Source of the DNA: Streptomyces sp. 135
GTDB taxonomy: Bacteria > Actinomycetota > Actinomycetes > Streptomycetales > Streptomycetaceae
Direction of reading: 5' to 3'
NCBI RefSeq assembly: GCF_020026305.1
Contig: NZ_CP075691.1
Span: forward strand, 4,340,001 to 4,404,000
DNA: 64,000 nucleotides
Below, piece by piece: positions 14,169-51,949 of this stretch; the stretch's first letter is position 1, and each line of letters opens with the position of its first letter. The notes under the pieces are model-generated. The model had not been told where the DNA came from. It was given only the letters and a program-made list of their open reading frames with translations, and did no database searches. The position numbers were made by a program, and so were the translations under genes.

Positions 14169-14169
14169 C

Positions 14170-14450: not shown

Positions 14451-21892
<7,442 letters not shown>

Positions 21893-21896
<4 letters not shown>

Positions 21897-30082: not shown

Positions 30083-30148
30083 TTCTTTCTTCCCCGTCAT
30101 TCTCAGCCTCAGCTCTGCCCCGACTCCGGACCCAACCGTCCCTGCCAC

Positions 30149-31249
30149 TCAGCCGGAAACCGTCTCGAATCCGGCGTCGAATTCCGTGGCGAGGTCGCCT
30201 TCCGCGAGGGCGCCTTCCGCGAGGGTGCCTTCCATGAGGCCGCCCCCCGCGATCCCGCCCTCCGTGATTCCGTCGCTCGTGAGGATTTCGGAACCGAGCG
30301 AATTCCGTACCCAGTCGTCGTGGTAGACGGTGTCCATATAGCGCTCGCCCAGGTCCGGCGAAATGGTCACGGCGGTCACCTCGTCGCGAACGCCTCCGGC
30401 TCCGTCCCCGTACTGCTCGGAGAGCCAGCGCAGCGAGCCGGCCACGACGGTGCCCGTGGAGCCACCGAAGAGGAATCCGTGCCGCATCAGCTCCCGGCAG
30501 GCGCGCACGGTGTCCGCCTCCGCGACGTGGACCGTGTCGTCGACCAGGGACTCGTCGAGGAGGGCGGGCCGCACGCTGGTGCCGAGGCCCGGGATGTGCC
30601 GGGTGGCCGCGGGGCCGCCGAAGGTGACGGAGCCGACGCTGTCGACGGCGACGACCCGCACCGAGGGCCGCCGCTCACGGAAGTAGCGGGCACAGCCCAT
30701 CAGGGTGCCCGTGGTGCCCGCGCCGATGAACAGCACGTTCAGGTCGGGGAACTGCCGGGCGATGGCCGGCGCGGTGGTCCGGTAGTGGGCCAGCGCGTTC
30801 CCGGGGCTCAGGTACTGGTTGAGCCAGACCTTCTTCTCGTCGGCGGCCAGCAGCGCCTTGACGTGGCGGATCCGCGCGCCGAGGAAGCCCTCGGTCTCGT
30901 GCGGCTCGGTGATGACGTGGACCTCGGCGCCGTAGGACTCCATGGTGCGCCGGGTCACGGCGTTGCAGCGGGAGTCGGTCACGCACAGGAACTTGAAGCC
31001 CTTGGCGGCGGCGAGCACGCTCAGGGCGACTCCCATGTTCCCCGATGAGGACTCCACCAGGGTCGAGCCGGCGCCGAGCACACCGGCGGCCTCCGCCTGC
31101 GCGACCATCTCGCGAGCGGCCTTCAGCTTGATGGATCCGGCGAAGTTGAATCCCTCGACCTTCAGAAAGAGACGGCGTCCGAAGAACGGCTGCAGATTCA
31201 CGAAGAGGTCGCTGACATCGAATTCATGCGACGCGGATATAACCGGCAC
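30149..31249 (-). CDS. sbnA-like: SbnA-like PLP synthase of 2,3-diaminopropionate synthesis
   Basis: 366 residues of the cysteine-synthase fold. The PLP Lys is Lys41 in NFAGSIKLKAA, the substrate loop is SSSGNMG and the phosphate loop is GAGTTGTLMG. SbnA joins O-phospho-L-serine and L-glutamate to N-(1-amino-1-carboxy-2-ethyl)-glutamate, which SbnB then cleaves to Dap. The VSDLF...FFGRRLFLKVEGFNFAGSIK N-terminus fits SbnA better than cysteine synthase. The GTG start at 31247-31249 follows AGGAG by 6 bp. It leads the central operon just before the NRPS with two acidic pockets, which supports Dap as its substrate. A C-terminal Glu/Gly/Ala-rich tail (about residues 335-366) looks dispensable. 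Confidence 0.88.
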   Translation of the reverse strand: MPVISASHEFDVSDLFVNLQPFFGRRLFLKVEGFNFAGSIKLKAAREMVAQAEAAGVLGAGSTLVESSSGNMGVALSVLAAAKGFKFLCVTDSRCNAVTRRTMESYGAEVHVITEPHETEGFLGARIRHVKALLAADEKKVWLNQYLSPGNALAHYRTTAPAIARQFPDLNVLFIGAGTTGTLMGCARYFRERRPSVRVVAVDSVGSVTFGGPAATRHIPGLGTSVRPALLDESLVDDTVHVAEADTVRACRELMRHGFLFGGSTGTVVAGSLRWLSEQYGDGAGGVRDEVTAVTISPDLGERYMDTVYHDDWVRNSLGSEILTSDGITEGGIAGGGLMEGTLAEGALAEGDLATEFDAGFETVSG

Positions 31250-31337: not shown

Positions 31338-31375
31338 CCCGGCATCGCAGGCCGGAGGCGGTGCCGGGCGCGTTT

Positions 31376-31415
31376 CGTCAGCGGGACGTCAGCCCCTCGT
31401 CAGTTGCCGGTCAGT
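31376..31415 (+). promoter_or_regulatory. SARP-box array for the divergent NRPS
   Basis: Four cores CGTCA/CGTCA/CGTCA/GGTCA (31376, 31387, 31398, 31409) repeat at exactly 11-bp spacing, pointing rightward, and end 53 bp before the NRPS start at 31469. The shared intergenic region can thus fire both large NRPS transcripts from one regulator. Confidence 0.78.
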
Positions 31416-31468
31416 GCCATCGGAAATTGTCGAATTCCGATATCTGGCTCTTCCGTGAGGAGCACGGC

Positions 31469-34400: not shown

Positions 34401-37400
34401 TTCCCCTGGACGCCCTGCCCCTGACCCCGAACGGCAAGGTCGACCGGAAGGCGCTGCCCGCGCCCCCCGGCGAGCGCGCCGGGGCGGGCAGGGCGCCGGT
34501 GGGGGCACAGGAGGAACTGCTGTGCGCGGTCTTCGCGGAGGTGCTCGGCCTGGAGCGGATCGGCGCCGACGACGACTTCTTCGCCCTCGGCGGTCACTCG
34601 CTGTCCGCGATCCGGGTCGCCAACCGGCTGCGCTCGGCCCTCGGCGTGGACGTCCCCGTGCGCGCCCTGTTCGACGCCCGCACCGCGCAGGCCCTGGCCC
34701 GCACGCTGCCCGAGGCCTCCGGCGCCCCCGCGGGGCCGCCCACCGCGTCCGGCACCCGCCGCCCGCCCCTGCGCGCCCTCCCGCACCGGCCGACCGCCGT
34801 CCCCCTCTCGTACGCACAGGAACGCCTGTGGTTCCTGAACCGGATGGACGGCGCGTCCGGCACGTACAACATCCCCCTGGTCGTCCGCCTCCGCGGCCCG
34901 CTCGACCCCGCGGCGATGACGGAGGCGGTACGTGATGTGGTCGCCCGGCACGAGAGCCTGCGCACCGTCTTCGCGGAGGCCGACGGACTCCCCGCCCAGC
35001 TGCTCCTCTCCCGCGAGGAGGCCGACGAGGCGGGCGCCCGCCTGGAGCACGTGCACCTGCCCGGCGAATCCGCTCTCGCCGCGGTCCTCGCCGCCGAGGC
35101 CGCCCACCCCTTCGACCTGTCGTCCCAGGCACCCGTGCGCGCCCGGCTCCTCACCCTGGGCGCCGACTCCCACGTCCTCGCCCTGACGGTGCACCACATC
35201 GCCGCCGACGGCTGGTCCCTCGGGCCGCTCGCCCGCGATCTGACGACCGCCTACCGGGCCCGGCTCACGGGCGCGGCACCGCGGTGGGAGCCGCTGCCCG
35301 TGCAGTACGCGGACCACGCCCTGTGGCAGCGGGAGCTGCTCGGCGCCAAGAGCGACCCGGACAGCCTGCTCGCGAAGGAACTCGCGCACTGGCGCGAGGC
35401 GCTGGCCGGCCTCCCCGAGGAGCTTGACCTGCCCACCGACTTCCCGCGCCCCGCGCGGGCCGGACACCGCGGCAGAAGCGTCGCGTGCACGGTCCCCGCC
35501 ACAACCCACGCCCGCCTGGCGGATCTCGCGCGGCGCACCACCGCGAGTCTCTTCATGACCGTCCACGCCGGGCTCGCCGCCCTGCTGACCAGGCTGGGCG
35601 CGGGCACCGACATCCCACTGGGCAGCCCCGTGGCGGGGCGCACCGACGAGGCGGTCCGCGATCTGGTCGGCTTCTTCGTCAACACGCTCGTCCTGCGCGC
35701 CGACACCAGCGGCGACCCCACGTTCACCCACCTGCTCTCCCGGGTGCGGGAGAGCGACCTGACGGCGTACGCCCACGCCGAGCTGCCCTTCGAGCACCTC
35801 GTCGAGGAGCTCAACCCGGCCCGCTCACTGGCCCGGCACCCCCTCTTCCAGGTCATGCTGGCCTTCCAGAACAGCGCGGACCCGCTGCCCGAACTGCCGG
35901 GCCTCACGGCCGAGGTCGAGCCGGTCGGCACGGTCACGGCGAAGTTCGACCTCTCCTTCCAGGTGACGGAGCGGACGGCCGCGGACGGCACCCCCGACGG
36001 CCTGGACATCCTCCTTGAGTACAGCGAGGACCTGTTCACCGAGGCGACGGCGGCTCGTATCGCGCAGGCCCTCGCCACCCTGCTCGACGCCGCGGCGCAC
36101 ACCCCCGACGCCCCGCTCAGCTCGCTGGCCCTGCTCACCCCCGAGGAGCGCCACACGCTCCTCACGGTGTGGAACGGTCACCCCCACCCGCAGCCGCCGG
36201 CCACCCTCGTCTCCCTCTTCGAGGCGAACGCGGCCCGCACCCCGGACCAGCCGGCACTGATCGCACCCGATCCGGGCCACGCCGGGCCCGCCCACCTCAC
36301 CTACGCCGAACTCGACACCCGGGCCAACCAGCTCGCCCACCTCCTCCTGCGGCGCGGTGTCGGACCCGGTGACCTCGTCGCCCTGGCCCTGCCACGCTCC
36401 GCCCGGCTGGTGGTCGCGCTGCTCGCCGTCCTCAAGACCGGCGCGGCCTATCTGCCGGTCGACCCGGACTACCCGGCCGAGCGCATCGCGTACATGCTCG
36501 GGGACGCGGCACCCGCCGAGGTCCTGACCGACGCGGCGGCCGCCGAGGGCCTTCCCGCGCTGCCCGCCGGAGCCGCCTGCCTCGTCCTCGACGACCCGGA
36601 CACCCTTGCCCGGCTCGCCGAGGGGCCCGGCACCGGCCCCACCGACGCCGACCGCACCCGCCCGCTGACGCCGCGGGATCGCGCGTACGTCATCTACACC
36701 TCGGGCTCGACGGGGCGCCCCAAGGGCGTCGTCGTGCCCCACGCGGGTGCGGCCAACCTGGCCGCCAACCAGCGGGCACGCCTCGGCACCGGGCCCGGCA
36801 CGCGGGTCCTTCAGTTCGCCTCGTTCAGCTTCGACGCCAGCGTGTGGGAGCTGTGCGCCTCGCTCTTCTCGGGCGGCACACTCGTCCTCGCCACCGCCGA
36901 CAGCAGACTCTCCCCGGAGATCCTGGTCGACCTGCTGATGGAGCACGGCATCAACCACGTGGTCCTGCCGCCCACCGTGGTCGCCTCGTTCCCGGAGGCC
37001 GCCGAGTTCCCCGATGATCTGTGCCTGCTCGTCGGCGGCGAGGCGTGTCCCCCCGCCGTGGCCGAGCGTCTCGCCCGGCTCGGCACCCCGCTGCGCAACG
37101 CCTACGGGCCGACCGAGACCTCGGTCTGCGCCACCTGGAGCGAGCCGCTGGCCACGGGCGGCAAGCCGCCGATCGGGCGCCCCCTGGACAACGTCCGGGT
37201 GTACGTCCTCGACCCGGCCCTCTCACCGGCACCCGTCGGTGTCACCGGTGAGCTCTACGTCGCCGGTGACGGCCTCGCCCACGGATATCTGGGCCGCCCC
37301 GCCACCACGGCCGACCGCTTCGTCGCGGACCCGTTCGGGCCGCCCGGAGCGCGCATGTACCGCACCGGTGACCTCGTGCGCTGGCGGCCCGACGGCACCC

Positions 37401-38725
37401 TCGACTTCCTCGGCCGCGCCGACCACCAGGTCAAGCTCCGCGGCTTCCGCATCGAGCCGGGCGAGATCGAGGCCACCCTCACCCGCCACCCGGTGGTCGA
37501 CCAGGCCGCCGTCACCCTCATGCCGTCACGGACCGGCGCCCCGCAGCTGACCGGGTACGTCGTGCCCGTCTCCGGCGTCGCCGCCGTCGACGTGCCCGTC
37601 CTGCGCGCGTACGTCGCCGAGTCCCTGCCCGCGCACATGGTGCCCGCGGCCCTGGTGACCCTGCCCGCGCTGCCCCTGACGGCGAACGGCAAGCTCGACA
37701 CCCGTGCCCTGCCCGACCCCACGGCGGCCGGCGCCACCGAGGCGGTCGCCCCCGGGCGCCCGCCGCGGACGGCCGCCGAGGAGATCCTGGCCGGCGTCTT
37801 CTGCGAGCTGCTCGGCCTGGAAGAGGTGGACGCCGACGGCGACTTCTTCGCCCTGGGCGGCGACAGCCTGCGGTCGGTACAGATCGTCAGCCGCGCCGCG
37901 AAGGCGGGACTCACGCTCTCGCTGGCCGACGTCTTCGCCCACAAGACGGTGGCGGCCCTCGCCGCGGCCGCCCGCACCACCGCCCCCTCGGCGCCCACCG
38001 AGGCCGTCCCGCTCGCCCCACTCCTGCCCATCCGGCCCACCGGCACCGCCGCCCCCCTCTTCTGTGTCCACGGCGGGGTCGGTTTCGGGTTGCCGTACGC
38101 GGAACTCGCCCCGCACATCGACGCGGACCGGCCGCTGTACGCCCTCCAGTCCGACGGCATCGCGGCGGACGCGGACGGCTGGGACCGGCCGAAGGACATC
38201 CCGGCGCTCGCGGCGACGTACGTCGAACGCGTCAGGCAGGTGCAGCCGCACGGGCCCTACCACCTGCTGGGCTGGTCGTTCGGGGGCCTGGTCGCGCACG
38301 AGATGGCCGTCCGGCTCCAGGCGGCGGGCGAGGAGGTCGCCTTCCTGGCGGCACTGGACGTCTATCCCGTGGCGCCCGACGACCCGAACCCCTCCGACGA
38401 GGAGATCCGCGCCGCGTTCCTCGAACACCACGCCACGGGCGCCGACATCGGCGCGGAGGACCTGCGCCGTCTCATGGCCGTCATGCGCCACCACACCGAC
38501 ATCGCCCGCGAGTTCAGCCCCGGGCGGTTCGCCGGACCGCTGACACTCTTCGTCGCCGCCGGTGAACAGCAGGCCCCGGACGCCGCACTCCCGCAGCGCT
38601 GGCTCCCGCACCTGGAGGGGCCGCTCACCGTGCACGAAGTGCCCTGCGGCCACGAGGAGATGCTCACCCCGCGAGCCGCCCGGGACATCGGCGCCCTGGT
38701 CGACGCGGCTCTGGGACATCGCTGA
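31469..38725 (+). CDS. NRPS, C-A-T-C-A-T-TE (Gly, then hydrophobic/aromatic residue)
   Basis: 2418 residues. The start is taken as TTG at 31469, with GAGGAG 6 bp upstream; the frame stays open further left but has no better site. C1 begins [12 protein letters not shown] with HHILVDG near 148. A1 (about 505-1000) reads D-I-L-Q-L-G-V-I-W, the Gly code. T1 has LGGHSL near 1040. C2 begins [10 protein letters not shown] near 1113 with HHIAADG. A2 (about 1590-2075) reads D-A-W-V-L-G-A-V-C, a hydrophobic pocket close to Phe types. T2 has LGGDSL near 2129 and the thioesterase has GWSFGG near 2268. It is the only cluster gene on the + strand. Its N-terminus closely resembles that of the other TE-bearing NRPS, so both may accept the chain from the same upstream subunit. 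Confidence 0.95.
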
Positions 38726-38790: not shown

Positions 38791-39552
38791 TCAGAGCGAG
38801 GGGTCCTGCATCAGGATCGCCTGGTAGAGGTGGTGCAGCCGGCGGCTCGGCTTGAGCCCCAGCTCGTCGTCGAGCCACTTGCGTGTGCGGTGGAAGATAT
38901 CGACGGCCTCGGACTGCCGCCCACAGCGGTACAGGGCGATCATCAGCTGCTCGCTGAACCGCTCGCGCTCCGGATACTGCGCGAGCAGCTGCTTCAACTC
39001 GGCGACGACGACCCCCGCTTCGCCGGCCTGGAGTTGAGCCGCGATGAGATTCTCCCTCGCGGTCTTGCGCTGTTCGTCGAGACGGAGCGCCACGGCTCTG
39101 CACCGCGGGCCGTCGCTGGCGTCGAGCAGGGCGGGGCCCCGCCACATGGAAAGGGACTCGCGCAGCAGGTCCATGGCCTCGTGCGGCCGCTCGTCGACCA
39201 GGCTCGCGCCCTTCTCCGCCGTACGCAGGAAGCGGTACGCGTCCAGGGAGCCCTCAGGGGCCTCAAGGACGTAGCCGTTGTCCACCGTACGGATGTGGAC
39301 CCGGTCGGGGCCGTCGAGGCCCAGTTCCCCCAATGACTGGCGCATGCGCTTCACGTTCGCATGCAGGGCGTTCCGCGCGTTCTTGAGTGTGGTCTCCCCC
39401 CACAACTCGTCGATGAGTTCATCAAATGCGACCACCAGCCCGGAGTTCAGGGCCAGCATCGCGAGCATGACTCGATTCTTCTTCGCCCGCATGCCGACGG
39501 TTCTATGACCGTCCCCGATCAGCAGCGGGCCCAATATGGAGATGTGTACCAA
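38791..39552 (-). CDS. SARP-family transcriptional activator
   Basis: 253 residues from the TTG at 39550-39552, with GGGGA 6 bp upstream. The N-terminus is the OmpR-like winged helix of SARPs (ISILGPLLIGDGH...LWGETTLKNARNALHANVKRMRQ), followed by the bacterial transcriptional activation domain (YRFLRTAEKGASLVDERPHEAMDLLRESLSMWRGPAL...). There is no ATPase domain, so it is a small SARP such as ActII-ORF4, not an AfsR-size one. It is the obvious candidate to bind the 11-bp-spaced GTCA repeats found at four cluster promoters. It converges with the third NRPS and follows the HTH-only LuxR gene. Confidence 0.93.
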   Translation of the reverse strand: MVHISILGPLLIGDGHRTVGMRAKKNRVMLAMLALNSGLVVAFDELIDELWGETTLKNARNALHANVKRMRQSLGELGLDGPDRVHIRTVDNGYVLEAPEGSLDAYRFLRTAEKGASLVDERPHEAMDLLRESLSMWRGPALLDASDGPRCRAVALRLDEQRKTARENLIAAQLQAGEAGVVVAELKQLLAQYPERERFSEQLMIALYRCGRQSEAVDIFHRTRKWLDDELGLKPSRRLHHLYQAILMQDPSL

Positions 39553-39668
39553 TTCCCGTCCCCTAGCTAAGAATTGAAGCCATAGAATCCCACCTTGCAC
39601 CTTGCGGTGTCGGGCCCGGGGCGCAAAACAGCGGTCGACTGTTCGGCCCGGTCTGACAGAGGGAAAGC

Positions 39669-40210: not shown

Positions 40211-42406
40211 TCAGTAGACGGTCGTTCGCTCCTCGACCGCGGCCGGCAGGCGCGTCGGCTTCGACTCGTCCTGGTGCGCGAGCCGCGAGGGCCACCACGT
40301 CTTCCAGCCGAGCAGCGTGACCACGGCCGGCAGGACGACGATCCGGATGAGCGTGGCGTCCAGGAACACCGCGCACGCCATGCCGACGCCCATCTGCTTC
40401 ATCTCGATGAAGTTCAACGAGGCGAGCAGGGCGAACACGCAGACCATCACCACCGCGGCGCTCGTCACCACCCCCGCCGTCCGCGTGATTCCCTGCTCGA
40501 CGGCGTCCCGGATGGACAGCCCGCCGCGCGCCGCCTCCCTGATCCGGCTGACGACGAAGACGTGATAGTCCATCGACAGGCCCAGCAGGATGACGAAGAG
40601 CATCAGCGGCAGCCAGGCCACCACCCGGCCCGTGGACTCGAAGTCGAGGATGCCCTCCGCCCAGGTCCGCTGGAAGATCAGCGCGAGCAGGCCGAACGAC
40701 GCCACCGCAGACAGGACGTTGAGGACCACCGTGATCAGGGCGAGCATGAGCGACCGGAAGGCGATGGCCATGACCAGGAAGGTCAGCAGCAGCGCGACAC
40801 CGAGCACCCAGGGCATCTTCTCGACGACGTTCGCGCGGTAGTCCACGTCGTAGGCCACGTCGCTGCCGCCGACCGCGAACTCGGCGCCCTCGACCGAGCC
40901 GACGGTGTTCGGCGCGATGTCCTCGCGCAGCACGGACAGGGACTCCCGGGCCTTCTCGGAGCTGCTGTTGAAGCGGGTGCCGACGGCGATCGTGGCGACC
41001 GTGCCGTCCTTGGACGTATGGACCTCGGGCGGCGGGGTGTGCGTGAAGAGCTTGTTCCGCTCGGCGCTTTCGACCAGCGCCGCGACCGCGGTGCGCAGCT
41101 CGCCGCGCTGCCCGTCGGGCACCTTCACGGCGACGGTGTGGGTGTCCGCCTGGCTCGGGAAGGACTGGGTCAGGCGCGCGTTGGCCTGCATCGCGGGTAT
41201 CGACTTGGGCAGGTCGTCGATGCCGGTGGCCTTCAGCTTCAGGTCGAGGGCCGGCAGCGCGAGGGCCAGCAGTACGCCGACGGAGAGCACCAGGGCGATG
41301 ACCGGGTGGCGCAGGGACGGCTTGAGCATCGTCGACCACAGACGGGGCTTGAGGCCGCCCTTCTGCGTGAGTCGCCACACCAGGGGCACCCGCGGCTTGT
41401 CCAGGTAGGAGCCGAACTTGGACAGCATGGCCGGCAGCACGGTCAGCGAGGCGAGCATCGCGATGGCGACGACCAGCACCGCTCCGGTCGCCATCGACTC
41501 GAAGGCGATGTGCCCGGCCAGGTAGAGCGCGCCCATGGAGACCATGACGACCAGGCCCGACACCATCACGGAGTGGCCGGAGGTGGCCGCGGCGATCTCG
41601 ATGGCGTCGATGTTGCGGGCGCCGAGAGCGCGTTCCTCGCGCTGCCGTTTGAGGTAGAAGAGCGAGTAGTCGACGCCGATGGCCATCCCCATCAGGACGA
41701 TGATGTGCGTCACCGGGCCCGGGTCCGGCACGAGTTGGGAGGCGACCCCCCACAGGCCGAGGCCGGCGAGGACCGACGAGATGCCGAGGACGACGGGGAC
41801 GCTCGCGGCGACGATCGCGCCGAAGACGAAGACCATGACGATCAGCGTCACCGGCAGGCTCAGCCCGGTCGCCTTCGTGAGGTCCTTCGCCAGCATGTCG
41901 TCGAGGCCGGCCTTGATGGTCCCGGCGCCGACCAGCTCGACGCGTACGTCCGTGTGGGACCGGCGGGTCTCGTCCAGCCTGTCGAGCAGCGGCTGCACCC
42001 GGTCGGCGGCCGTCTCCGGATCGCCCTTGAGCGTCACCGGCACCAGCAGCGCCGAGCCGTCCGGCGCCCGGACGGGCCTGCCGATCGAGGCGACGCCCTT
42101 GGCGCCCTTCAGCGCGGCCACCGCGTCGTCGGCCGCCGCCCGCGCCACACCCGGGTCGAGCTTGTCCCGGTACGGAGTGACCAGGATGTTCTCCACCGCA
42201 TGGTCTTCCAGGCCGCCGCTCTTGGCGATGGCGGCCGACCGGCCGGACTGGCCTATGGCCAGGTCCGAGTCGGTGGCCGACCGGGTACCGGCCATGCCGC
42301 CGACCACCAGCGCGCCCAGGACGAACACCACCCAGAGCGTCATCGCCCACCACGGATGGACGGCGCTCCACCGGGCGGACCTGGTGATCAGGTTCCTGCC
42401 TCCCAC
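40211..42406 (-). CDS. MMPL/RND-family transporter
   Basis: 731 residues from the GTG at 42404-42406, which has GAGGAGGGG about 9 bp upstream; a longer frame from 42436 is less likely. There are twelve membrane segments in the MMPL pattern: one helix, an outer loop of about 140 residues, five helices, then the same arrangement repeated. Typical MMPL motifs are present in the second and fifth-sixth helices (GVDYSLF, LSMDYHVFVVSRI). Actinobacterial MMPL proteins export lipids, siderophores and lipopeptides. It closes the rightmost operon, so the cluster has two exporters (ABC pair and MMPL). That may reflect two products or an acylated product. Confidence 0.93.
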   Translation of the reverse strand: MGGRNLITRSARWSAVHPWWAMTLWVVFVLGALVVGGMAGTRSATDSDLAIGQSGRSAAIAKSGGLEDHAVENILVTPYRDKLDPGVARAAADDAVAALKGAKGVASIGRPVRAPDGSALLVPVTLKGDPETAADRVQPLLDRLDETRRSHTDVRVELVGAGTIKAGLDDMLAKDLTKATGLSLPVTLIVMVFVFGAIVAASVPVVLGISSVLAGLGLWGVASQLVPDPGPVTHIIVLMGMAIGVDYSLFYLKRQREERALGARNIDAIEIAAATSGHSVMVSGLVVMVSMGALYLAGHIAFESMATGAVLVVAIAMLASLTVLPAMLSKFGSYLDKPRVPLVWRLTQKGGLKPRLWSTMLKPSLRHPVIALVLSVGVLLALALPALDLKLKATGIDDLPKSIPAMQANARLTQSFPSQADTHTVAVKVPDGQRGELRTAVAALVESAERNKLFTHTPPPEVHTSKDGTVATIAVGTRFNSSSEKARESLSVLREDIAPNTVGSVEGAEFAVGGSDVAYDVDYRANVVEKMPWVLGVALLLTFLVMAIAFRSLMLALITVVLNVLSAVASFGLLALIFQRTWAEGILDFESTGRVVAWLPLMLFVILLGLSMDYHVFVVSRIREAARGGLSIRDAVEQGITRTAGVVTSAAVVMVCVFALLASLNFIEMKQMGVGMACAVFLDATLIRIVVLPAVVTLLGWKTWWPSRLAHQDESKPTRLPAAVEERTTVY

Positions 42407-42505
42407 GATTACTTTCCCCTCCTCGAACGAAAACACGGGATCGCGGGACGCAGGCCTGGCTTCACGTTCCGGCCGGTCTTTACCGCGCGCTCTTACGCTT
42501 TCAAT

Positions 42506-43240
42506 CTAGTGACGCCCCGATTCCGGGCCACGGGTACAAGTACGTTGATTGGAGGGGGAGTTTCTTCCACTTGACACGGCGGGACACCACATCCTCAGCG
42601 ACACATGAAAAGGCCTTTCGCCCACCAACGCAACGGCTCCGGCACGTCCTTCGGGGAGTGGCAGGTCGGCGACTCTCCAGGGCCCGGTGAGCGGCCCGGT
42701 GGAGGGCCGCACAATAGCCTGCCCGTCGGCGTGGGCGACAGGGAGTCCCATACCTTGAGTGAGCCGGGCGCCCGCGGCCTTCACACACGCCTCTTTCCTG
42801 ACCCACAGGCGCGTGAAGGCCGCGCGGCCGCCGGATGCCACCAACTGCCTTTCCGTTTCCGGGAAGAAGCGCTGAGCGAGGCGCATGCCGTCCAAGTCCG
42901 CGCGGGCCTCTTCCACGTCCACGCCGACCGGCCGGGGAGCCAGGGCGAGCAGGGCCAGGTCACCCGAGTGCGACAGGTTGAAGTGCGGTCGCCCCGCCCC
43001 CGCGACGAGCGGCTTGCCCCAGCGGCCCCGCTCGAAGCGCAGGGTGTCCGGCGCCCGGCCCACGTGCTCACCGATGATGATCCGTGCGGCGGCGTGCGCG
43101 ATCACGAAACGGCGCCGCATGCCGGGACGCAGTCCGAGGCGTGCGCGCGCCGTCTCCTCCTCGTCGAGGAGGTCTTCGAGGGCGGGCGGATACCCGTCCG
43201 GGCCGCTCCCCGCACCGAGCGGTATGTGCCACACCACCAC
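42506..43240 (-). CDS. Sfp-type 4'-phosphopantetheinyl transferase
   Basis: About 244 residues. The Mg/CoA motifs are GVDVEEA and LWVRKEACVKAAG, and FNLSHSGDLALLAL is the Sfp-type substrate motif. No ATG is available; one of three consecutive GTG codons (43240, 43237, 43234) just after the dehydrogenase gene is used as start, so the N-terminus is uncertain by a few residues. It converts apo-carriers to holo form and should serve the six NRPS T domains and the two discrete ACPs. Residues after WCPAV at the C-terminus (about 25) have no counterpart that I recall and may be non-essential. Confidence 0.92.
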   Translation of the reverse strand: MVVWHIPLGAGSGPDGYPPALEDLLDEEETARARLGLRPGMRRRFVIAHAAARIIIGEHVGRAPDTLRFERGRWGKPLVAGAGRPHFNLSHSGDLALLALAPRPVGVDVEEARADLDGMRLAQRFFPETERQLVASGGRAAFTRLWVRKEACVKAAGARLTQGMGLPVAHADGQAIVRPSTGPLTGPWRVADLPLPEGRAGAVALVGERPFHVSLRMWCPAVSSGRNSPSNQRTCTRGPESGRH

Positions 43241-43272
43241 CTGGTCCGTCTCACGGCGAAGGGGTGCCCGGT

Positions 43273-44433
43273 TCAGCGTCTCCCCACCTTCCCCGTGTGG
43301 AGCCCCTGGAAGAGGTTGAGCTTCTGGATGGTGCGCGTCCCCTCCATGAACTCCACGCCCCGCGCGTCCCTGGCGAGCTTGTCCAGGAGCGGGTGGTCGA
43401 GGCGGGCGCCGGGCCCGAAGAAGCCGAGGGCCTGGATCGTCACGTCCTCCGCGAGCTCGCACGCGCGGGCCTTCGCCGCCGACGCGAGATGCCCCGCGGA
43501 CGGCCGGGCGTCCACGGCGCGAGCGGCGCGGTAGGTCAGCTGCCGGGCGGCGTCGATGCGCCGGCCCAGCTCGTCGAACAGCTCGCGCTCCGCGCCCCGC
43601 AGCAGCTGCCGGTGCTCGGCCACGTACTCGTGGGCCGCGCGGGCGATGCCGAGGGCGATCGCCGCGACGCTGGGGCGCAGCTGGTTGAAGACGTTGACGA
43701 TGCTCCACATGCCGCGGCGCGTCGGCGGGAGGTGCGTGCCGAGCACCCGCCCGGCCGGGACCCGTACCGAGTCGAGCGTGATGTGGGTGAGCTGGACGCC
43801 GCGCAGCCCGACCGTGGGCAGCGGCTCCGCCCGGAAGCCGGGGTCGGAGGTGTCCACGAGGACGGCCGTCACGCCGAGCCGCTCGGTACCGGCGACGCGC
43901 GCGAAGACGGCGGCGATGTCGGCGCGCGCGGCGTTGCCGACGTACCGCTTCTGGCCGTCGAGGACGTAGGAGCCGTCGCCCGCCGGGGTCAGCGTGACGG
44001 TCATCTCCCCGATGGCGGAGCCCCGCTCGGGCTCGGTCAGGGCGAAGCAGGTCCAGGTGGGGCGCTCGGCGAGCCTGCCGTACACCCAGTCCCGCTGCTC
44101 CTGGCTGCCGAGGACGCCCAGCAGTACCCCGCACATCGAGGGGCCGGGCGAGGCCAGCATCATCCCGGCGTCACCGCGCGCCAGTTCCTCGCTCACCAGG
44201 ACCCGTTCGAGCGTGGCCAGTCCGTGCGCGGGACCGCTGCCCGCGTCCCGGCTCGACCGCTCCCAGCCGGGCGGGACCTCGTGCCCGGCGAGGAAGCGCA
44301 CCGCGGGCAGGTCCAGGTACCGGTGGATGGCGTCCGGGTCCCGGTCGAGCTCCAGGGCGCCCGCGCGCAGGCCGTCGGCCCAGTCCCGTACGTACCGGTG
44401 CGTGGTGAGGAGCGAGCCGGGCAGGCTGATCAC
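43273..44433 (-). CDS. Acyl-CoA/acyl-ACP dehydrogenase
   Basis: 386 residues, a complete flavin-dependent ACAD. The FAD/substrate stretch is WTCFALTEPERGSAIGEM, the beta-domain has GQKRYVGNAARADIAAVFARV, and the C-terminus carries ARGVEFMEGTRTIQKLNLFQG with the catalytic Glu region. It would oxidise a saturated thioester to a 2,3-enoyl thioester. The ATG overlaps the stop of the next upstream gene (ATGA). Located in the operon with an ACP, an ATP-grasp ligase and a PLP decarboxylase, its likely substrate is an ACP-bound aminoacyl group or another acyl-ACP of the pathway, not a beta-oxidation intermediate. This is inferred from context. Confidence 0.9.
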   Translation of the reverse strand: MISLPGSLLTTHRYVRDWADGLRAGALELDRDPDAIHRYLDLPAVRFLAGHEVPPGWERSSRDAGSGPAHGLATLERVLVSEELARGDAGMMLASPGPSMCGVLLGVLGSQEQRDWVYGRLAERPTWTCFALTEPERGSAIGEMTVTLTPAGDGSYVLDGQKRYVGNAARADIAAVFARVAGTERLGVTAVLVDTSDPGFRAEPLPTVGLRGVQLTHITLDSVRVPAGRVLGTHLPPTRRGMWSIVNVFNQLRPSVAAIALGIARAAHEYVAEHRQLLRGAERELFDELGRRIDAARQLTYRAARAVDARPSAGHLASAAKARACELAEDVTIQALGFFGPGARLDHPLLDKLARDARGVEFMEGTRTIQKLNLFQGLHTGKVGRR

Positions 44434-45230
44434 ACGGCCCCCTTGGCGGTATGGCCGGTATGCCCGGTATGGCTGGTGTCACCGGTATCGCCGGTCCGGT
44501 CGGTCTCGTACGAGGTGCCGGGCCGTGGCCCGCAGTACACGTCGGCGAGGAGTTCGGAGGCGTGGGCGGCCGTGCCGGGCCCCGCCGAGGTGAAGCCGTG
44601 CGCGCCGAGCAGCCGCAGCAGCGCCCGGTCGGTCCGGGTGATCTGCGCCTGGATCCGGGTGAGCGTGTGCTCGTCCACCGGCAGGCGGGGGCCGAGGGGC
44701 GTGTCGTCGGCCGCGGCGCCGTCGGCGAGGTCATCGAGGACGCCCTCGATCTCCAGGTGCTCGATCAGCACGTCGGCGAGCGCGCCCTTGACCATCTGCT
44801 GCATCAGCAGCGAGACCCCTTCGACCTGCCGTGCCGCCAGATAGGCGATGCAGTCGTCCCGCAGCCGTTCGGACATGCCGAGCCGCAGCCAGGCGAGACT
44901 GGCGTTCCAGTCGAGGGGCGCGGGTCCGGCGCCGGGCCGTGGTTCCCGGCCGCCCGCACCGGGCCGCAGGACGGCGAGGCCCGGCAGCGGTTCCTCGTCC
45001 TCGCTCGCGCTCCGGCCTCCGTCGCTCCCGCTCCGGGCGTCCCGCGAGCCCTCCATGGCGGCGAACTCGTCGAGCAGCTCCTTCGGCAGGACGGCATGGC
45101 CACGCGGCCCGCGTGGCGGCACCCCGGGGGACAGGGCCCGGGCCAGCAGCGTCAGCGCGGGCACCAATCCGTCCGCGCGTGCGTTCACCCGTGCCTCGTG
45201 TCCGTGCTCACGCACCTCGGCCGAGACCAT
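44430..45230 (-). CDS. Acyl-CoA-dehydrogenase-like half protein (degenerate partner?)
   Basis: 266 residues from the ATG at 45228-45230, which lies inside the end of the upstream gene (23-bp overlap). It is not confidently recognised. Residues about 105-225 look like the helical C-terminal part of acyl-CoA dehydrogenases (WLRLGMSERLRDDCIAYLAARQVEG..., LLRLLGAHGFTSAGPGTAAHASELLADVY). The FAD-binding middle domain and catalytic Glu segment are absent. The tail is a short Gly-Asp/His-Thr repeat. Its junction with the complete dehydrogenase (ATGA) suggests a heteromeric enzyme with one catalytic and one non-catalytic subunit. It could instead be an unrelated helical protein. Confidence 0.45.
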   Translation of the reverse strand: MVSAEVREHGHEARVNARADGLVPALTLLARALSPGVPPRGPRGHAVLPKELLDEFAAMEGSRDARSGSDGGRSASEDEEPLPGLAVLRPGAGGREPRPGAGPAPLDWNASLAWLRLGMSERLRDDCIAYLAARQVEGVSLLMQQMVKGALADVLIEHLEIEGVLDDLADGAAADDTPLGPRLPVDEHTLTRIQAQITRTDRALLRLLGAHGFTSAGPGTAAHASELLADVYCGPRPGTSYETDRTGDTGDTSHTGHTGHTAKGAV

Positions 45231-46122
45231 CAGCAGTCCCCCATTCCCCCGTGTCGAGCGTGCAGTAGGCCAAGAAGTCCCGCTCGCGGTCGTAGTCGGC
45301 CACGACCAGGTGCCGGGCCGGGGCCGCGGCCTCCAGGAGCGCGGTCCACACGCCCGTGCACGGCTGCCCGAGCGCACCCCTCGCCACCACTTCGCCGCGC
45401 GGCGGGAGCGTGGGCCCCGCCGCGCCTTCCTCATCGGCTCCGCGAGCGGGGAGACCCGCCCCGGCCACGACCGCCGCCCGCTCGTCCCACTGCGTGAAGA
45501 CCTCGGCCGACGGCCTGCCCTGCGCCATGCCCCGCACGGCGCCCTCGCCCCCCGGCCACTCCACGAGCAGCGCCACCGCCGCGTCGGCACGGACGGCCGC
45601 CTGGCCCGAGTCCGGCACGGCGTACGGCTGTGTGCCCTGATCGACGATCATCACAAGGAGCCGGCACAAGCCACAGCGTCGGGCGTACTCCACCGCCACC
45701 CGCAGCGCGCTGAACGGCGCGAGGACACCCTGGTCGGAGAGGGCGAACGACAGGGGCTCGCCCGGCAGCCGCCGCTTCAGGCAGGACGCGACCAGCTCGG
45801 CGTGCTCGAAATCCGGGGTGGCGTAGGCGACCACCACCACCTCGGGGCACTCCTGCGCGGACAGCGGCCCCAACGCGTCGAGTGCGCCGTACGCCAGCTC
45901 CACGGAGGTGCGCCGGCCCGAGGCGGCGTACCGCTCGCGGTCGAAGGACGCCCCGTAGGGGGCGCCCATCTCGCGGAAGAAGCCCTCCCGCACGGGATCG
46001 GGCTCGTAGACCCCGCCCGGCTCCGGCGCGGTATGCCGCGCCGCCCGGATGATCCGGGGCACGGCCGCCGGGGTGTCGGCCCCGGCGGGGGGACGCCGCA
46101 CGGGCGCAGTCGTGCGGAACAT
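45208..46122 (-). CDS. KAS III/thiolase-like protein without the catalytic Cys
   Basis: 304 residues. The segment VVVVAYATPDFEHAELVASCLKRRL...FALSDQGVLAPFSALRVAVEYARRCG has the layout of the KAS III N-terminal half. Where the nucleophile (AACAGFxYAL) is expected there is SDQGVLAPFSAL, with no Cys. The C-terminal half is short and lacks the HN and GN motifs. The protein is therefore probably a non-catalytic partner, as CLF is to KS-alpha, perhaps for the full KAS III encoded at 49256-50188 in the same operon. It starts 3 bp after the ACP stop. The family call is moderate; the pairing is inference. Confidence 0.55.
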   Translation of the reverse strand: MFRTTAPVRRPPAGADTPAAVPRIIRAARHTAPEPGGVYEPDPVREGFFREMGAPYGASFDRERYAASGRRTSVELAYGALDALGPLSAQECPEVVVVAYATPDFEHAELVASCLKRRLPGEPLSFALSDQGVLAPFSALRVAVEYARRCGLCRLLVMIVDQGTQPYAVPDSGQAAVRADAAVALLVEWPGGEGAVRGMAQGRPSAEVFTQWDERAAVVAGAGLPARGADEEGAAGPTLPPRGEVVARGALGQPCTGVWTALLEAAAPARHLVVADYDRERDFLAYCTLDTGEWGTADGLGRGA

Positions 46123-46124
46123 GC

Positions 46125-46409
46125 TCAGCCGCTCGTTTCCGCCGCGACGAAGCCGGCGAGGGAGCCCACCGTCTCGAAGTGCGTCATCTCCAGCTCATCG
46201 GCGTCGAACTGGACGCCGAGGATCTCCTCGATGGTGATGAGCAGTTCGAGTGCGCTGCTGGAGTCCAGGCCCAGCTCGTCGAAGAGCCGCACACTCTCCT
46301 CGGCCCCGGTCACGTCCTTGTTCAGGACCTCCGAAAGGCCTTCGCGGACAGCGTTCACATACCGCTCGCGGTCCGCGGTGCTCAGGGCGACTGCGGTGTT
46401 CTCGGTCAT
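46125..46409 (-). CDS. Acyl carrier protein of the aminoacyl cassette (BtrI-like)
   Basis: 94 residues with the phosphopantetheine Ser at Ser50 (FDELGLDSSSALELL). It differs from the polyketide ACP and lies between the Cys-less KAS III-like gene (2 bp away) and the PLP decarboxylase (96 bp). In butirosin synthesis BtrI carries glutamate added by an ATP-grasp ligase and decarboxylated in place. Gene content here matches that scheme, so this ACP probably carries an amino acid thioester. It needs the Sfp-type transferase of the same operon. Confidence 0.9.
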   Translation of the reverse strand: MTENTAVALSTADRERYVNAVREGLSEVLNKDVTGAEESVRLFDELGLDSSSALELLITIEEILGVQFDADELEMTHFETVGSLAGFVAAETSG

Positions 46410-46505
46410 GTCGATCTCCTTGTTCAGGGGTGGGTCGTTCGGCGGGTGAATGGTTCGGTGCGTGGGTGACGCGGGCGCGGGGACGGTCGGTCCGGCGGGC
46501 GGGGC

Positions 46506-47792
46506 TCAGCTCTCGTCGGTGCCCGTGGCGTCGTACAGCCGCTGCCGCCCGAGCATCACCTCGACGTCGTCCCGCTCGCGGATCAGCCGCGCCCGGCCGT
46601 CCAGGACCAGGACCTCCGCCGGGTATCCGTGGCTCAGGAAGTGCACCGGCGAGGCCGTCGGGCCGTAGGCGCCGGAGCGCTGCACTCCCACCAGCTCGCC
46701 GGCCCGCAGCGCCGGCATCGGCACCTTCTTGCCGATGACATCGTTCGGGGTGCACAGCGGTCCCGTGATGTGCCACGGCTCGGTGGCCGGCTCGTCCATG
46801 CGCTCCAGGGCGGCCATCGGGAAGTTCCGCTTCACGTACGAGCCGATGCCGACCGCCGCCATGTGGTGGTTGGTGCCGCCGTCGGTGACGGCGAAGTTCT
46901 CCCCCATCGACGTCTTGGTGTAGCGCACGCGCGTCACATAGGTGCCGGACGCGGCGACGAGGAAGCGGCCCAACTCCATGATCATGCGGGTGTCGGGGTG
47001 CCGGGACGTGAACCCCTCGATGAGGGGGTTGAGGTGTGCGGAGAGCTCCGCGAGGTCCAGGTCCTTCTCGTTGTCGAAGTAGGCGATGCCGAGGCCGCCC
47101 CCGATGTCGACCATCTCCAGGGGGAAGTCCAGGTGGGCCGAGACGCGTTCGGCCAGGTCCAGGATGCGGCGGGTGTTCTCGACGACCGTCTCCTCGCCGA
47201 GGATGCGCGTGCCCAGGTAGACCTGGACGCCCATGAGCCGCACGGCGGGGTAGCGGGCGGCCAGCTCCGGGGTCTCGGCGAGGAGCTGCTCCTCGTCCAT
47301 GCCGAACTGGCGCGGCTTGCCGCCCATCGTCAGGCCCGAGCCCTTCACGGAGAAGCTCGGGTTGACGCGCAGCGCGACGCGCGCCGTGACGCCGCGCTCA
47401 CGCGCCACCTCGTCGATGAGGGCCAGTTCGCCGAGGGACTCGCAGACGAGCGCGTAGATGCCCTCGTCCAGGCAGGCCGCCAGTTCGGCGCGGCTCTTGC
47501 CGGGGCCGAGGAAGATGATGTCGCGCGGTGCGACACCCGCGCGGCGCGCCGTCACCAGCTCGGTCAGCGAGGAGACCTCGGCCCGGGCACCGCAGCGGTA
47601 CAGCAGGGAGCAGATGGAGATGTTGGGGTTGGCCTTGAGGGAGTAGAAGACCTCCAGGGAGGGGTGCAGCTGCTCGCGCAGCCCCTGGAAGCGGGTGGTG
47701 ATCTCCTCGCCGTCGTACAGGTAGAGGGGGGTGCCGAACTCCTCGGCGAGTTCGGTGATGCCGACGCCTTGCACCTCAAATGCGACGCTCAC
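46506..47792 (-). CDS. Fold-type III PLP decarboxylase (LysA/BtrK-like)
   Basis: 428 residues from the GTG at 47790-47792, two bases after the ATP-grasp stop. The PLP Lys is Lys53 in VFYSLKANPN; GGGLG (phosphate binding), CTPND and SGAYGPTASPVHF are the other family motifs. Relatives include diaminopimelate decarboxylase and BtrK, which removes the alpha-carboxylate of Glu bound to an ACP, giving GABA-S-ACP. The adjoining ACP and ATP-grasp genes favour the BtrK-type role over lysine synthesis. The true amino acid (Glu or another) cannot be read from the sequence. Confidence 0.9.
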   Translation of the reverse strand: MSVAFEVQGVGITELAEEFGTPLYLYDGEEITTRFQGLREQLHPSLEVFYSLKANPNISICSLLYRCGARAEVSSLTELVTARRAGVAPRDIIFLGPGKSRAELAACLDEGIYALVCESLGELALIDEVARERGVTARVALRVNPSFSVKGSGLTMGGKPRQFGMDEEQLLAETPELAARYPAVRLMGVQVYLGTRILGEETVVENTRRILDLAERVSAHLDFPLEMVDIGGGLGIAYFDNEKDLDLAELSAHLNPLIEGFTSRHPDTRMIMELGRFLVAASGTYVTRVRYTKTSMGENFAVTDGGTNHHMAAVGIGSYVKRNFPMAALERMDEPATEPWHITGPLCTPNDVIGKKVPMPALRAGELVGVQRSGAYGPTASPVHFLSHGYPAEVLVLDGRARLIRERDDVEVMLGRQRLYDATGTDES

Positions 47793-47794
47793 GT

Positions 47795-49207
47795 TCAGCT
47801 CCGTTCCGTGTGGGCCGCGAGGCGGCGGGTGATGTCGGCGTCGAGTGCGCCGACCAGGTCGTCGGAGGCCGCCACGAGCACGCCGTACAGCCGGCCCTCG
47901 AAGCCGTCCGCACCGTCGGTGGCGGCGGCGTTCACCGTGGCGTAGTTGTTCACGAAGAGGCCGTGGGGGCGCGGGCCCCGCTCCTCCAGCAGCAGCCCGG
48001 ACAGGACCTCGCGCAGCTCCGCGAAGGGGAGCGGCCGGTCCAGGCGGACCGTGAAGTGCCGGGCGACGGCGACCTCGTCGGGGCCGGCGAGCCCTTCGTG
48101 CACGACGTTCTGGTACGTGGACATGTTGTTGCGGGCGTTGATCTCGATGACGGGGTAGAGGCCCTCGTCCGGGTCGACCATCGCGTCGACGCCGACCACT
48201 CCGAAGTAGCCGTCGGCGTGGAGCCGCTCCCCGAGCCGGTGCGCGGTGCGGGTGATCTCCTCGACCTGCTCCTCGCTCAGCCGGGCAGGCATGCGGTGGC
48301 CCTTGTGGACGCCGTTCTCGGTGAGCAGTTCCTTGACGAAGTCGAAGTGGGTGGAGCCGTCCCGGCCGACCGTGAACTGGTAGTTGAGGTCGGCCCGCTT
48401 GGCGACCCACTCCTCGATCACGAGGGCGGTACGCGGACTCGTGCCGTCGGCGGCCGCCGCGCGCTCGGCCTGCGCGACCGCCATCCGGTGCAGCCGGGCG
48501 AGACGCTTGGCGCTGTCGAGGACGACGATGCCCTTGCCGGACACGCCGAAGGCGTCCTTGACGACGACCTTGCGCCCCGCGTCGAGCAGTTCCCCGGCCG
48601 CGGTGACGGCATCGGCCAGTTCGTCGAGCGTCTCGCAGGCCCAGCCCCGCGCCTGCCGGATGCCGAGCTCATCGGCGAGCCTGCGGCTGTACACCTTGCT
48701 GTTGACCCGCTTGCAGACGCCGGCCGGGGGAGCGCCCAGGCGCAGCCCGGTCCGCTCGGCCAGCTCTTCCTCCACGGTGGAGATGCCGTGCGCCGTCAGC
48801 CGGGCCCCGTCGTCGGCGAGCGCTGACAGGGTGCGCAGCAGCTCCGGGTCGGCGAGGGCGTCCTCGCTGACCGTGCGCTGCGGGTCCTGGTCGGCGACCA
48901 CGTGCACGGTGGGCAGGGTGAGGCCGAGCCCCTCCAAGTAGGCGCGGTAGCCGTCGTCCAGGGGCGTCTTGAGGACGACGTGGTCGTCCTTGCCGCCGAG
49001 CAGCAGCGCGAACTCGTCCATGCGGTTCACGACGGCGCTCCCCGCGTGGGAGGCGACCCGGGGCAGCGCCGGTTCGCCGAGCGCCCACTGGTTCTCCACC
49101 TCGAAGTTGCCCAGGAACACCAGGGGCGTGTCGACGGCCCCGGTGACGGCGTGCTTGAGGCGCCCGCTGAAGCCGGCGGACGGAAGATGCATGTCGACCT
49201 CGTTCAT
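47795..49207 (-). CDS. ATP-grasp ligase (BtrJ-like aminoacyl-ACP ligase candidate)
   Basis: 470 residues. The ATP-grasp fold shows as KVVVKDAFGVSGKGIVVLD (P-loop-like lysine strand), ALVIEEWV, and the metal site GVDAMVDPDEGLYPVIEINARNN. ATP-grasp enzymes couple a carboxylate to a nucleophile through an acyl phosphate. BtrJ does so between glutamate and the phosphopantetheine thiol of BtrI. Peptide ligases of the PGM1 type are the main alternative. It lies in the order KAS III - ligase - decarboxylase - ACP, with tight spacing to the decarboxylase, which supports loading of the cassette ACP. Confidence 0.88.
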   Translation of the reverse strand: MNEVDMHLPSAGFSGRLKHAVTGAVDTPLVFLGNFEVENQWALGEPALPRVASHAGSAVVNRMDEFALLLGGKDDHVVLKTPLDDGYRAYLEGLGLTLPTVHVVADQDPQRTVSEDALADPELLRTLSALADDGARLTAHGISTVEEELAERTGLRLGAPPAGVCKRVNSKVYSRRLADELGIRQARGWACETLDELADAVTAAGELLDAGRKVVVKDAFGVSGKGIVVLDSAKRLARLHRMAVAQAERAAAADGTSPRTALVIEEWVAKRADLNYQFTVGRDGSTHFDFVKELLTENGVHKGHRMPARLSEEQVEEITRTAHRLGERLHADGYFGVVGVDAMVDPDEGLYPVIEINARNNMSTYQNVVHEGLAGPDEVAVARHFTVRLDRPLPFAELREVLSGLLLEERGPRPHGLFVNNYATVNAAATDGADGFEGRLYGVLVAASDDLVGALDADITRRLAAHTERS

Positions 49208-49255
49208 TTCTCTGTGTGCGCCCGCTCGGGTGCGCGGTGTACGGCTGACGGGTAC

Positions 49256-50188
49256 TCAGTGCTCGAAGACCATGGCGGCGAAGGTCGCCCCGAGCCCCAC
49301 GCTGGTCATGAGGTAGCGGTCGCCGGGCCGTAGCCGTCCCAGCTCCCCGGCCCTCTGCAGATTGATGAAGGGATCGGCGCAGAAGCAGTGGCCGGTCTCC
49401 GGCACCAGGTCGAGGAAGACCCGGTCGAGGGGCAGCCCGAGCGTCTTGCAGACGCCGATCCACGACAGCCGGTTGACGTTGTGCGGCAGCACGAGTGCCA
49501 GGTCGTCGAGGCCGCACCCCGCTTCCTCCAGGGCCGCGCTGATCACCTCGCACAGGCCGGGCCCGTAGAGGTCCTGGAACTCCTTGGCCGCCTCGGCGCC
49601 CATGATGAACTCGTCGCCGAACCGCGTGTGGGTGCGCGCCGCGTACCCGAGCATCCGGTCGCCCCCGGCAGGGTTCGCGCTCACCAGAACGGCGACCGTG
49701 CCCTCGCCCATCACCGTGACGTCAGGGATGGACTGCGTCTGGACCGTGCACACCTTCTCCCCGGCGAGGACGAGGGCGAGCGCGTCCGGGTCCGGGTCGG
49801 CGGCGAGCAGCGTCCCCGCGATGTCCACGGCGAGCAGCCCCGAGGCGCAGGCGTGGTGGGAGACGACGAACCCGGCGGCGTGCTCCAGGCCGAGTTCGGC
49901 CTGCACCGGGCGGAGCGAGGTGAGTGGGTACGGCAGCGGCGAGGGCATGGTCCGCGCCTGGAGGACGTACTTGACGCGCTGTTCCTGTCCCCGCAACTCC
50001 ACGAGCTTCGTCGCGGCCCGCAGGAGCAGCTCGGGCTCGGTCGCCTGCGGGTCCCGGCAGACCTCGGACAGCCCGTAGAAACGCTCGTAACGCCTTAGCT
50101 GGACATCTGTGAGCTGGAGTTCCTTCTGGAAGCGGGAGATCGGGATGGTGTCGGGAAGGCAGCTGGAGACCGCCACGATCGACGTCAT
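49256..50188 (-). CDS. KAS III-family condensing enzyme with altered triad
   Basis: 310 residues. The nucleophile is Cys114 (SHHACASGLLA) and the His is His236 (LPHNVN). At the usual Asn (GNTSAAS) the protein has His267 (ETGHCFCAD). KAS III relatives with changed triads include acyltransferases such as CerJ, which make esters or amides instead of C-C bonds. The ATG at 50186-50188 gives the usual N-terminus (MTSIVAVSSCLP) but has no ribosome-binding site. The SARP repeats end only 25 bp upstream, so the message may be leaderless. It is the first gene of the rightmost operon. Its substrates are unknown; an aminoacyl-ACP of the cassette is the natural guess. Confidence 0.88.
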   Translation of the reverse strand: MTSIVAVSSCLPDTIPISRFQKELQLTDVQLRRYERFYGLSEVCRDPQATEPELLLRAATKLVELRGQEQRVKYVLQARTMPSPLPYPLTSLRPVQAELGLEHAAGFVVSHHACASGLLAVDIAGTLLAADPDPDALALVLAGEKVCTVQTQSIPDVTVMGEGTVAVLVSANPAGGDRMLGYAARTHTRFGDEFIMGAEAAKEFQDLYGPGLCEVISAALEEAGCGLDDLALVLPHNVNRLSWIGVCKTLGLPLDRVFLDLVPETGHCFCADPFINLQRAGELGRLRPGDRYLMTSVGLGATFAAMVFEH

Positions 50189-51878: not shown

Positions 51879-51915
51879 TCAGCGCGTACCCGAGCCCATC
51901 GGCGAGGGAACCGAA

Positions 51916-51949
51916 CCGCCCCGCCCATCCGTAAGGAAGGGCGGGGCGG
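51916..51949 (+). terminator. Terminator after the cyclophilin gene
   Basis: An 11-bp GC-only inverted repeat (51916-51926 and 51939-51949) with a 12-base loop lies 38 bp past the stop codon. Confidence 0.75.

What the first reader, a model, noticed from the sequence alone, without database searches (positions are those of the whole stretch)
42506..50188. Butirosin-like aminoacyl-ACP cassette fused to condensing-enzyme and dehydrogenase pairs
ATP-grasp ligase, ACP and LysA-fold PLP decarboxylase stand together, as in butirosin (BtrJ, BtrI, BtrK: Glu loaded and decarboxylated to GABA-ACP). In the same operon are a KAS III, a Cys-less KAS III-like protein, a full acyl-CoA dehydrogenase and a dehydrogenase-like half protein. 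I know of no described pathway with this combination. A possible route is Glu-ACP to GABA-ACP, then desaturation to a 4-aminocrotonyl-type unit or condensation or acyl transfer by KAS III, to decorate or extend the peptide. Gene families are seen; the route is inferred.
Basis: partly seen in the sequence, partly recalled or inferred. Interest (0 to 1): 0.9.

Follow-up and report, generated by a model that had tools for sequence, protein, structure and literature searches.

The report
Enamide starter cassette for a lipopeptide
The seven genes very probably build a fatty chain joined to dehydro-beta-alanine on a carrier protein, the starting block of an enamidonin-type antibiotic lipopeptide, in a gene cluster closely related to the known ishigamide cluster; it is a further member of a known kind rather than a new pathway.

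Summary
An ATP-grasp ligase, BtrK-type decarboxylase, ACP, KAS III (KASA), Cys-less KAS III-like partner (KASB), acyl-CoA dehydrogenase (ACAD) and half-ACAD form one operon. It recurs, all seven genes in the same order, in 48 of 80 named loci; the ligase occurs in 29 of 393 genomes sampled from the window's genus. The proposed route is only half right. The wider cluster has Dap genes (SbnA, SbnB), an NRPS reading Dap(E)-Dap, two TE-ended bimodular NRPSs (Gly + Phe-like; Thr + X) and a type II PKS whose KS and CLF are 92% and 84% identical to those of ishigamide, a tetraenoyl-beta-alanine. Dap-Dap-Gly-Phe is the ring of enamidonin/autucedine, which carry acyl-dehydro-beta-alanine. With the bolagladin and AFC-BC11 precedents, the best reading is: Asp (not Glu) loaded by its side chain, decarboxylated to beta-alanyl-ACP, N-acylated by KASA/KASB (KASA has the Cys-His-Asp residues of acyl-transferring KAS III proteins), desaturated by ACAD/half-ACAD, and passed to the NRPS starter C domain. 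Substrate and step order are inferred. Its own features are the polyene PKS and two alternative terminating NRPSs.

The parts
49256..50188 (-). KASA: KAS III-like protein with Cys114, His236, His267, Asp272; proposed N-acyltransferase
   Evidence: the four residues invariant in 86 homologues
47795..49207 (-). ATP-grasp ligase (PreAtp-grasp + ATP-grasp), proposed amino acid:ACP ligase
46506..47792 (-). BtrK-type PLP decarboxylase with CTP motif
46125..46409 (-). free-standing ACP of the cassette (Ser50)
45208..46122 (-). KASB: KAS III fold without conserved Cys or His, proposed inactive partner of KASA
44430..45230 (-). half acyl-CoA dehydrogenase (C-terminal helical domain only)
43273..44433 (-). 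acyl-CoA dehydrogenase with catalytic-position Glu364 (EGT)
42506..43240 (-). 4'-phosphopantetheinyl transferase
40211..42436 (-). MMPL-family exporter
38791..39600 (-). SARP/BTAD activator
31361..38725 (+). NRPS3: C-A(Gly)-T-C-A(DAWVLGAVC, Phe-like)-T-TE
30149..31249 (-). SbnA, Dap biosynthesis (TIGR03945 above cut-off)
21893..30148 (-). NRPS2: C-A-T-E-C-A-T, two A domains DVWEMTADD (Dap by inference)
14451..21896 (-). NRPS1: C-A(Thr)-T-C-A(DAFALGVTF)-T-TE
12259..14363 (-). ABC exporter genes (permease 12259-13200, ATPase 13197-14363)
11902..12144 (-). ACP of the type II PKS (start approximate)
   Evidence: DELGADSLKLIDV motif read in the translation
10570..11844 (-). KS of the polyene PKS, 92.4% identical to 6kxd_A (ishigamide KS)
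9449..10702 (-). CLF, 84% identical to 6kxd_B
8724..9452 (-). ketoreductase
7021..8727 (-). flavin amine-oxidase-fold oxidoreductase (start approximate)
5911..6942 (-). SbnB, Dap biosynthesis (TIGR03944 above cut-off)
5341..5823 (-). MaoC-like dehydratase

Best explanation
The seven genes are a starter-unit cassette that makes an N-acyl-dehydro-beta-alanyl thioester (an enamide) for a lipopeptide of the enamidonin/autucedine type. Inferred steps: (1) the ATP-grasp ligase loads L-Asp by its side-chain carboxylate onto the free ACP; (2) the BtrK-type enzyme decarboxylates it to beta-alanyl-ACP; (3) KASA, with KASB as a catalytically dead partner, takes an acyl chain onto Cys114 and transfers it to the amine of beta-alanyl-ACP, the chain coming in this genome from the ishigamide-type polyene PKS at 5-12 kb; (4) ACAD with the half-ACAD desaturates N-acyl-beta-alanyl-ACP to the enamide; (5) the starter C domain of NRPS2 joins this to Dap, NRPS2 makes D-Dap-Dap, and NRPS3 adds Gly and a Phe-like residue and cyclises. 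NRPS1 (Thr-X-TE) is a second, alternative terminator. Ishigamide, a tetraenoyl-beta-alanine, would then be the released product of step 3. Shown here: gene families, motifs, conservation, cluster composition. Not shown: substrate identity, step order, product.
For: BtrK is the closest solved relative of the decarboxylase, far above LysA. Seven-gene order kept in 48 of 80 loci. SbnA and SbnB above curated cut-offs. NRPS2 C-A-T-E-C-A-T with twin codes, then Gly and a Phe-like code with TE = D-Dpr-L-Dpr-Gly-Phe, the ring of olenamidonins/autucedines, which carry acyl-dehydro-beta-alanine (PMC11204786). KS 92.4% and CLF 84% identical to the ishigamide pair 6kxd (PMC7949117); ishigamide is a tetraenoyl-beta-alanine (PMC11022428). 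KASA Cys114, His267, Asp272 invariant in 86, with the TGH...D motif of CerJ and DpsC. Bolagladin: deletion of the ACAD gene bolQ gives the beta-alanine congener, deletion of the BtrK-like bolN abolishes product (PMC7756342). AFC-BC11: Asp decarboxylated on the carrier protein and a KAS III-like protein transferring the chain to an amine, in vitro (PMC12186527).
Against: Asp against Glu cannot be told from sequence here. The aut and iga cluster sequences could not be read, so presence of this cassette in them is not shown. In S. alfalfae, scored as 100% ishigamide in another strain, cassette and KS lie on different contigs. NRPS1 has no place in a plain autucedine pathway. KASA also keeps a FabH-like His236.
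Confidence: 0.82

Rival explanations
1. One reading: Glu-ACP is decarboxylated to GABA-ACP, which is desaturated to a 4-aminocrotonyl unit and acylated or extended.
For: BtrK, the closest solved relative, acts on Glu-ACP (butirosin knowledge). Side-chain loading followed by decarboxylation fits Glu as well as Asp.
Against: No product of the related clusters (ishigamide, autucedine/enamidonin) is described with GABA; they carry beta-alanine or dehydro-beta-alanine. BtrK-like enzymes BolN and AfcP are assigned to Asp.
Confidence: 0.1
2. KASA/KASB is a condensing pair that extends the aminoacyl-ACP with malonyl-ACP, so the amino acid primes a polyketide.
For: KASA keeps a FabH-like His236 besides Cys114; a FabG-like reductase lies near the cassette on a S. 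decoyicus plasmid.
Against: FabH's Asn is replaced by His267, with Asp272, as in CerJ and DpsC. Several loci carry the pair with no KR, DH or PKS hit in the stretch held. AFC-BC11 shows a KAS III-like protein forming an amide.
Confidence: 0.08

Closest known systems
Ishigamide (iga) cluster, Streptomyces sp. MSC090213JE08, MIBiG BGC0001623
   Same: KS 92.4% and CLF 84% identical; polyene type II PKS with NRPS genes; product is a polyene amide of beta-alanine
   Different: Described product is only acyl-beta-alanine; whether iga holds this cassette could not be read here
Enamidonin / autucedine / olenamidonin / kutzneridine lipopeptides (aut cluster)
   Same: Acyl-dehydro-beta-alanine, D-Dpr, L-Dpr, Gly and Phe match the cassette plus NRPS2 and NRPS3; a KAS III protein is proposed to join the acyl chain on the ACP
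   Different: Simple C7-C13 chains proposed from acyl-CoA, whereas this cluster has its own polyene PKS and an extra Thr-X-TE NRPS
Bolagladin (bol) cluster, Burkholderia gladioli
   Same: Amino acid loaded on a free ACP, BtrK-like decarboxylase, KAS III acylation proposed, ACAD desaturation, NRPS starter
   Different: VinN-like adenylation enzyme instead of ATP-grasp; KAS III proteins with Ser or Thr for Cys; no half-ACAD mentioned
AFC-BC11 (afc) cluster, Burkholderia cepacia complex
   Same: Asp to beta-alanine on a carrier protein; KAS III-like protein makes an amide; dehydro-beta-alanine residues
   Different: No C domains; FAAL acylates; three dehydro-beta-alanines
Butirosin BtrI/BtrJ/BtrK
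   Same: ATP-grasp ligase, ACP and BtrK-type decarboxylase
   Different: Glu substrate; no KAS III, ACAD or NRPS step; product goes onto an aminoglycoside (from knowledge of the pathway)

Membership tests
Enamidonin/autucedine-type lipopeptide cluster | Two Dap modules with epimerisation after the first | tested here: met
   NRPS2 C-A-T-E-C-A-T, identical codes; SbnA and SbnB above cut-off. Dap itself is inferred.
Enamidonin/autucedine-type lipopeptide cluster | Gly and Phe modules with a terminal TE | tested here: inconclusive
   NRPS3: Gly code clear, second code DAWVLGAVC only Phe-like, TE present
Enamidonin/autucedine-type lipopeptide cluster | Genes for acyl-dehydro-beta-alanine on an ACP | tested here: met
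   ligase, ACP, BtrK-type decarboxylase, KAS III, ACAD; function not assayed
Enamidonin/autucedine-type lipopeptide cluster | Sequence orthology to aut genes | not testable with these tools
   aut sequences and Org Lett 2022 paper not held
Ishigamide (iga) type II PKS | Orthologous KS-CLF | tested here: met
   92.4% and 84% identity to 6kxd chains A and B
Ishigamide (iga) type II PKS | Dedicated ACP, KR and DH | tested here: met
   ACP 11902-12144, KR and MaoC DH
Ishigamide (iga) cluster | Same seven-gene cassette in the iga cluster | tested here: inconclusive
   contiguous with the KS in the window and G117; iga itself not held; S. alfalfae has both, on two contigs
Butirosin side-chain cassette | ATP-grasp ligase + ACP + BtrK-type decarboxylase together | tested here: met
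Butirosin side-chain cassette | Glu as substrate | not testable with these tools
   needs an ACP loading assay
Bolagladin-type cassette | BtrK-like decarboxylase + KAS III + ACAD feeding an NRPS | tested here: met
Bolagladin-type cassette | VinN-like adenylation enzyme for Asp | tested here: not met
   the ligase here is PreAtp-grasp/ATP-grasp; no free AMP-binding enzyme among the cluster proteins scanned

The most novel reading that the evidence does not exclude
One Dap-Dap initiating NRPS, fed with a polyene enamide starter, is shared by two alternative TE-ended NRPSs on opposite strands, so that a single ishigamide-type cluster makes two families of polyene-enamide lipopeptides, and ishigamide is only their released starter unit.
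Probability: 0.4. Interest if true: 0.55.

Novelty: new member of a known kind. Interest (0 to 1): 0.42.

Why it matters
It links two literatures that no paper listed in my searches joins (ishigamide polyenes; enamidonin/autucedine lipopeptides), gives a reason why ishigamide carries beta-alanine, and predicts an undescribed polyene-enamide lipopeptide. It also marks a widespread actinomycete enamide-making unit with two unusual subunit pairs, an active KAS III with a dead partner and an acyl-CoA dehydrogenase with a half-sized partner, ready for reconstitution.

Tried and rejected
Streptoaminal/5aTHQ cluster of S. nigrescens HEK616 (a cassette bearer, L131): rejected, because the stm cluster is described with nine genes, two KS/CLF sets and an aminotransferase. 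Ordinary diaminopimelate decarboxylase: rejected (BtrK far closer). GABA-primed polyketide: see rivals. Literature searches for BtrJ/BtrK with ACP, and for KASIII with ATP-grasp and Dap, found nothing; the lead came from a search for glutamyl-ACP/BtrK. The plasmid search gave one full-length relative, on a S. decoyicus plasmid. My regex for A-domain codes failed on NRPS2 of the window; those codes were read by hand and agree with the regex result for the same domains in G117.

Full report
What is there. The span 42506-50188 holds, in transcription order on the minus strand, KASA, an ATP-grasp ligase, a PLP decarboxylase, an ACP, a Cys-less KAS III-like protein (KASB), a half acyl-CoA dehydrogenase, a full acyl-CoA dehydrogenase and a PPTase; an MMPL exporter and a SARP activator follow. 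The two proteins without Pfam hits were tested with family alignments. KASB's profile hits FabH structures (6e-8) and the listed relatives of its model (pLDDT 88) are all KAS III or type III PKS structures, though with poor global superposition (TM about 0.5). The half-ACAD matches the C-terminal helical domain of acyl-CoA dehydrogenases weakly but repeatedly (23 of 32 members; Foldseek top hits are ACADs at TMq about 0.4).

Conservation. A scan with the ligase family gave 80 loci from Streptomyces, Kitasatospora, Amycolatopsis, Saccharothrix, Actinomadura, Micromonospora, Thermobifida and others. In 48 of them all seven genes stand in the same order on one strand; others are truncated, rearranged or lack the ACAD pair. 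The ligase occurs in 29 of 393 sampled genomes of the window's genus. Within these 80 loci of about 20 kb, 30 hold a close Dap gene (SbnA or SbnB) and 16 an ishigamide-like KS, 15 of these with a Dap gene. The context varies: Dap-NRPS with PKS (window, G117), Dap-NRPS with no such KS found nearby (G084, S. nigrescens HEK616), and clusters with a FAAL-like AMP ligase, an ACP, a MatE exporter and a free C domain (Thermobifida).

Wider cluster. I take the cluster to run from about 3.3 to 50.2 kb. SbnA and SbnB pass curated cut-offs. NRPS2 is C-A-T-E-C-A-T with two identical A codes DVWEMTADD; I read these as Dap because of the acidic pocket and the Dap genes, not from a reference table. NRPS3 is Gly plus DAWVLGAVC plus TE; NRPS1 is Thr plus DAFALGVTF plus TE. 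The codes were derived with motif rules recalled from GrsA and EntF. The KS and CLF are 92.4% and 84% identical to the solved pair 6kxd; that this is Iga11-Iga12 rests on PMC7949117, which names the sister entry 6KXF as the ishigamide ACP-KS-CLF.

Meaning. Ishigamide is a tetraenoyl-beta-alanine (PMC11022428). [quoted passage not shown] In bolagladin a BtrK-like decarboxylase and an ACAD make acyl-dehydro-beta-alanine as NRPS starter, supported by deletions (PMC7756342). In AFC-BC11 decarboxylation of carrier-bound Asp and chain transfer by a KAS III-like protein were shown in vitro (PMC12186527). The window combines these parts. KASA has Cys114, His267 and Asp272 invariant in 86 homologues; in the alignments His267 takes the place of FabH's Asn, with the TGH...D motif of CerJ and DpsC, which fits acyl transfer rather than condensation. 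ACAD keeps Glu364 in 59 of 59. KASB has no conserved Cys or His, which fits a structural partner.

Step order. PMC11204786 words it as ligation to DHA-ACP; bolagladin's authors favour acylation before desaturation. Ishigamide, which is saturated at the beta-alanine, and the expected instability of a free 3-aminoacrylyl thioester favour acylation first; this is inference.

Limits. No residue-level test for Asp against Glu was possible. The S. alfalfae link is indirect: its cassette and KS lie on different contigs, and the 100% ishigamide score is for another strain. No paper appeared in both the enamidonin and the ishigamide result lists, which concerns this library only.

Verdict. Observation confirmed; interpretation partly supported, with the amino acid and the KAS III role probably wrong; a new member of a known kind, with a polyene PKS and two terminators as its own features.

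Noticed in passing
window 21893-30148: The two Dap A domains of NRPS2 share a 1.34 kb stretch 94.6% identical with an 817-base exact repeat, as after recent duplication or gene conversion.
   Followed up: partly
window 14451-21896 and 31361-38725: Two different TE-ended bimodular NRPSs on opposite strands serve one initiating NRPS2; G117 (Kitasatospora) keeps both, other relatives seem to have only one.
   Followed up: partly
L036-L040, L042-L045, L047: A shorter cassette KASA-ACP-KASB-PPTase without ligase, decarboxylase or ACAD, beside an ABC exporter; in L045 also an FMN dehydrogenase, an aminotransferase and a DUF6271 protein. What loads its ACP is unknown.
   Followed up: partly
L106 6604-19302 (Thermobifida cellulosilytica): FAAL-like ligase, ACP, full cassette, MatE exporter, free C domain and PPTase in a small cluster: perhaps a minimal N-acyl-dehydro-beta-alanine amide pathway.
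   Followed up: no
L138, L139, L141, L142: Five-gene form (ligase, decarboxylase, ACP, KASB, KASA) with no ACAD gene found; an MFS exporter seen in L139 and L142.
   Followed up: no
L131 (Streptomyces nigrescens HEK616) and L148 (S. decoyicus plasmid): Cassette clusters in a strain known for streptoaminals and on a linear plasmid.
   Followed up: no
window 51219-61815: Next to the cluster lie core genes (rhomboid, sortases, PASTA kinase, penicillin-binding protein) and the window is in the middle of the 8.8 Mb chromosome, an uncommon place for such a cluster in Streptomyces.
   Followed up: no
window 46506-47792: The decarboxylase scores higher on TIGR03099 (exosortase A-associated decarboxylase, 380 bits, below cut-off) than on LysA (292 bits): the exosortase-linked enzymes may also act on ACP-bound amino acids.
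   Followed up: no
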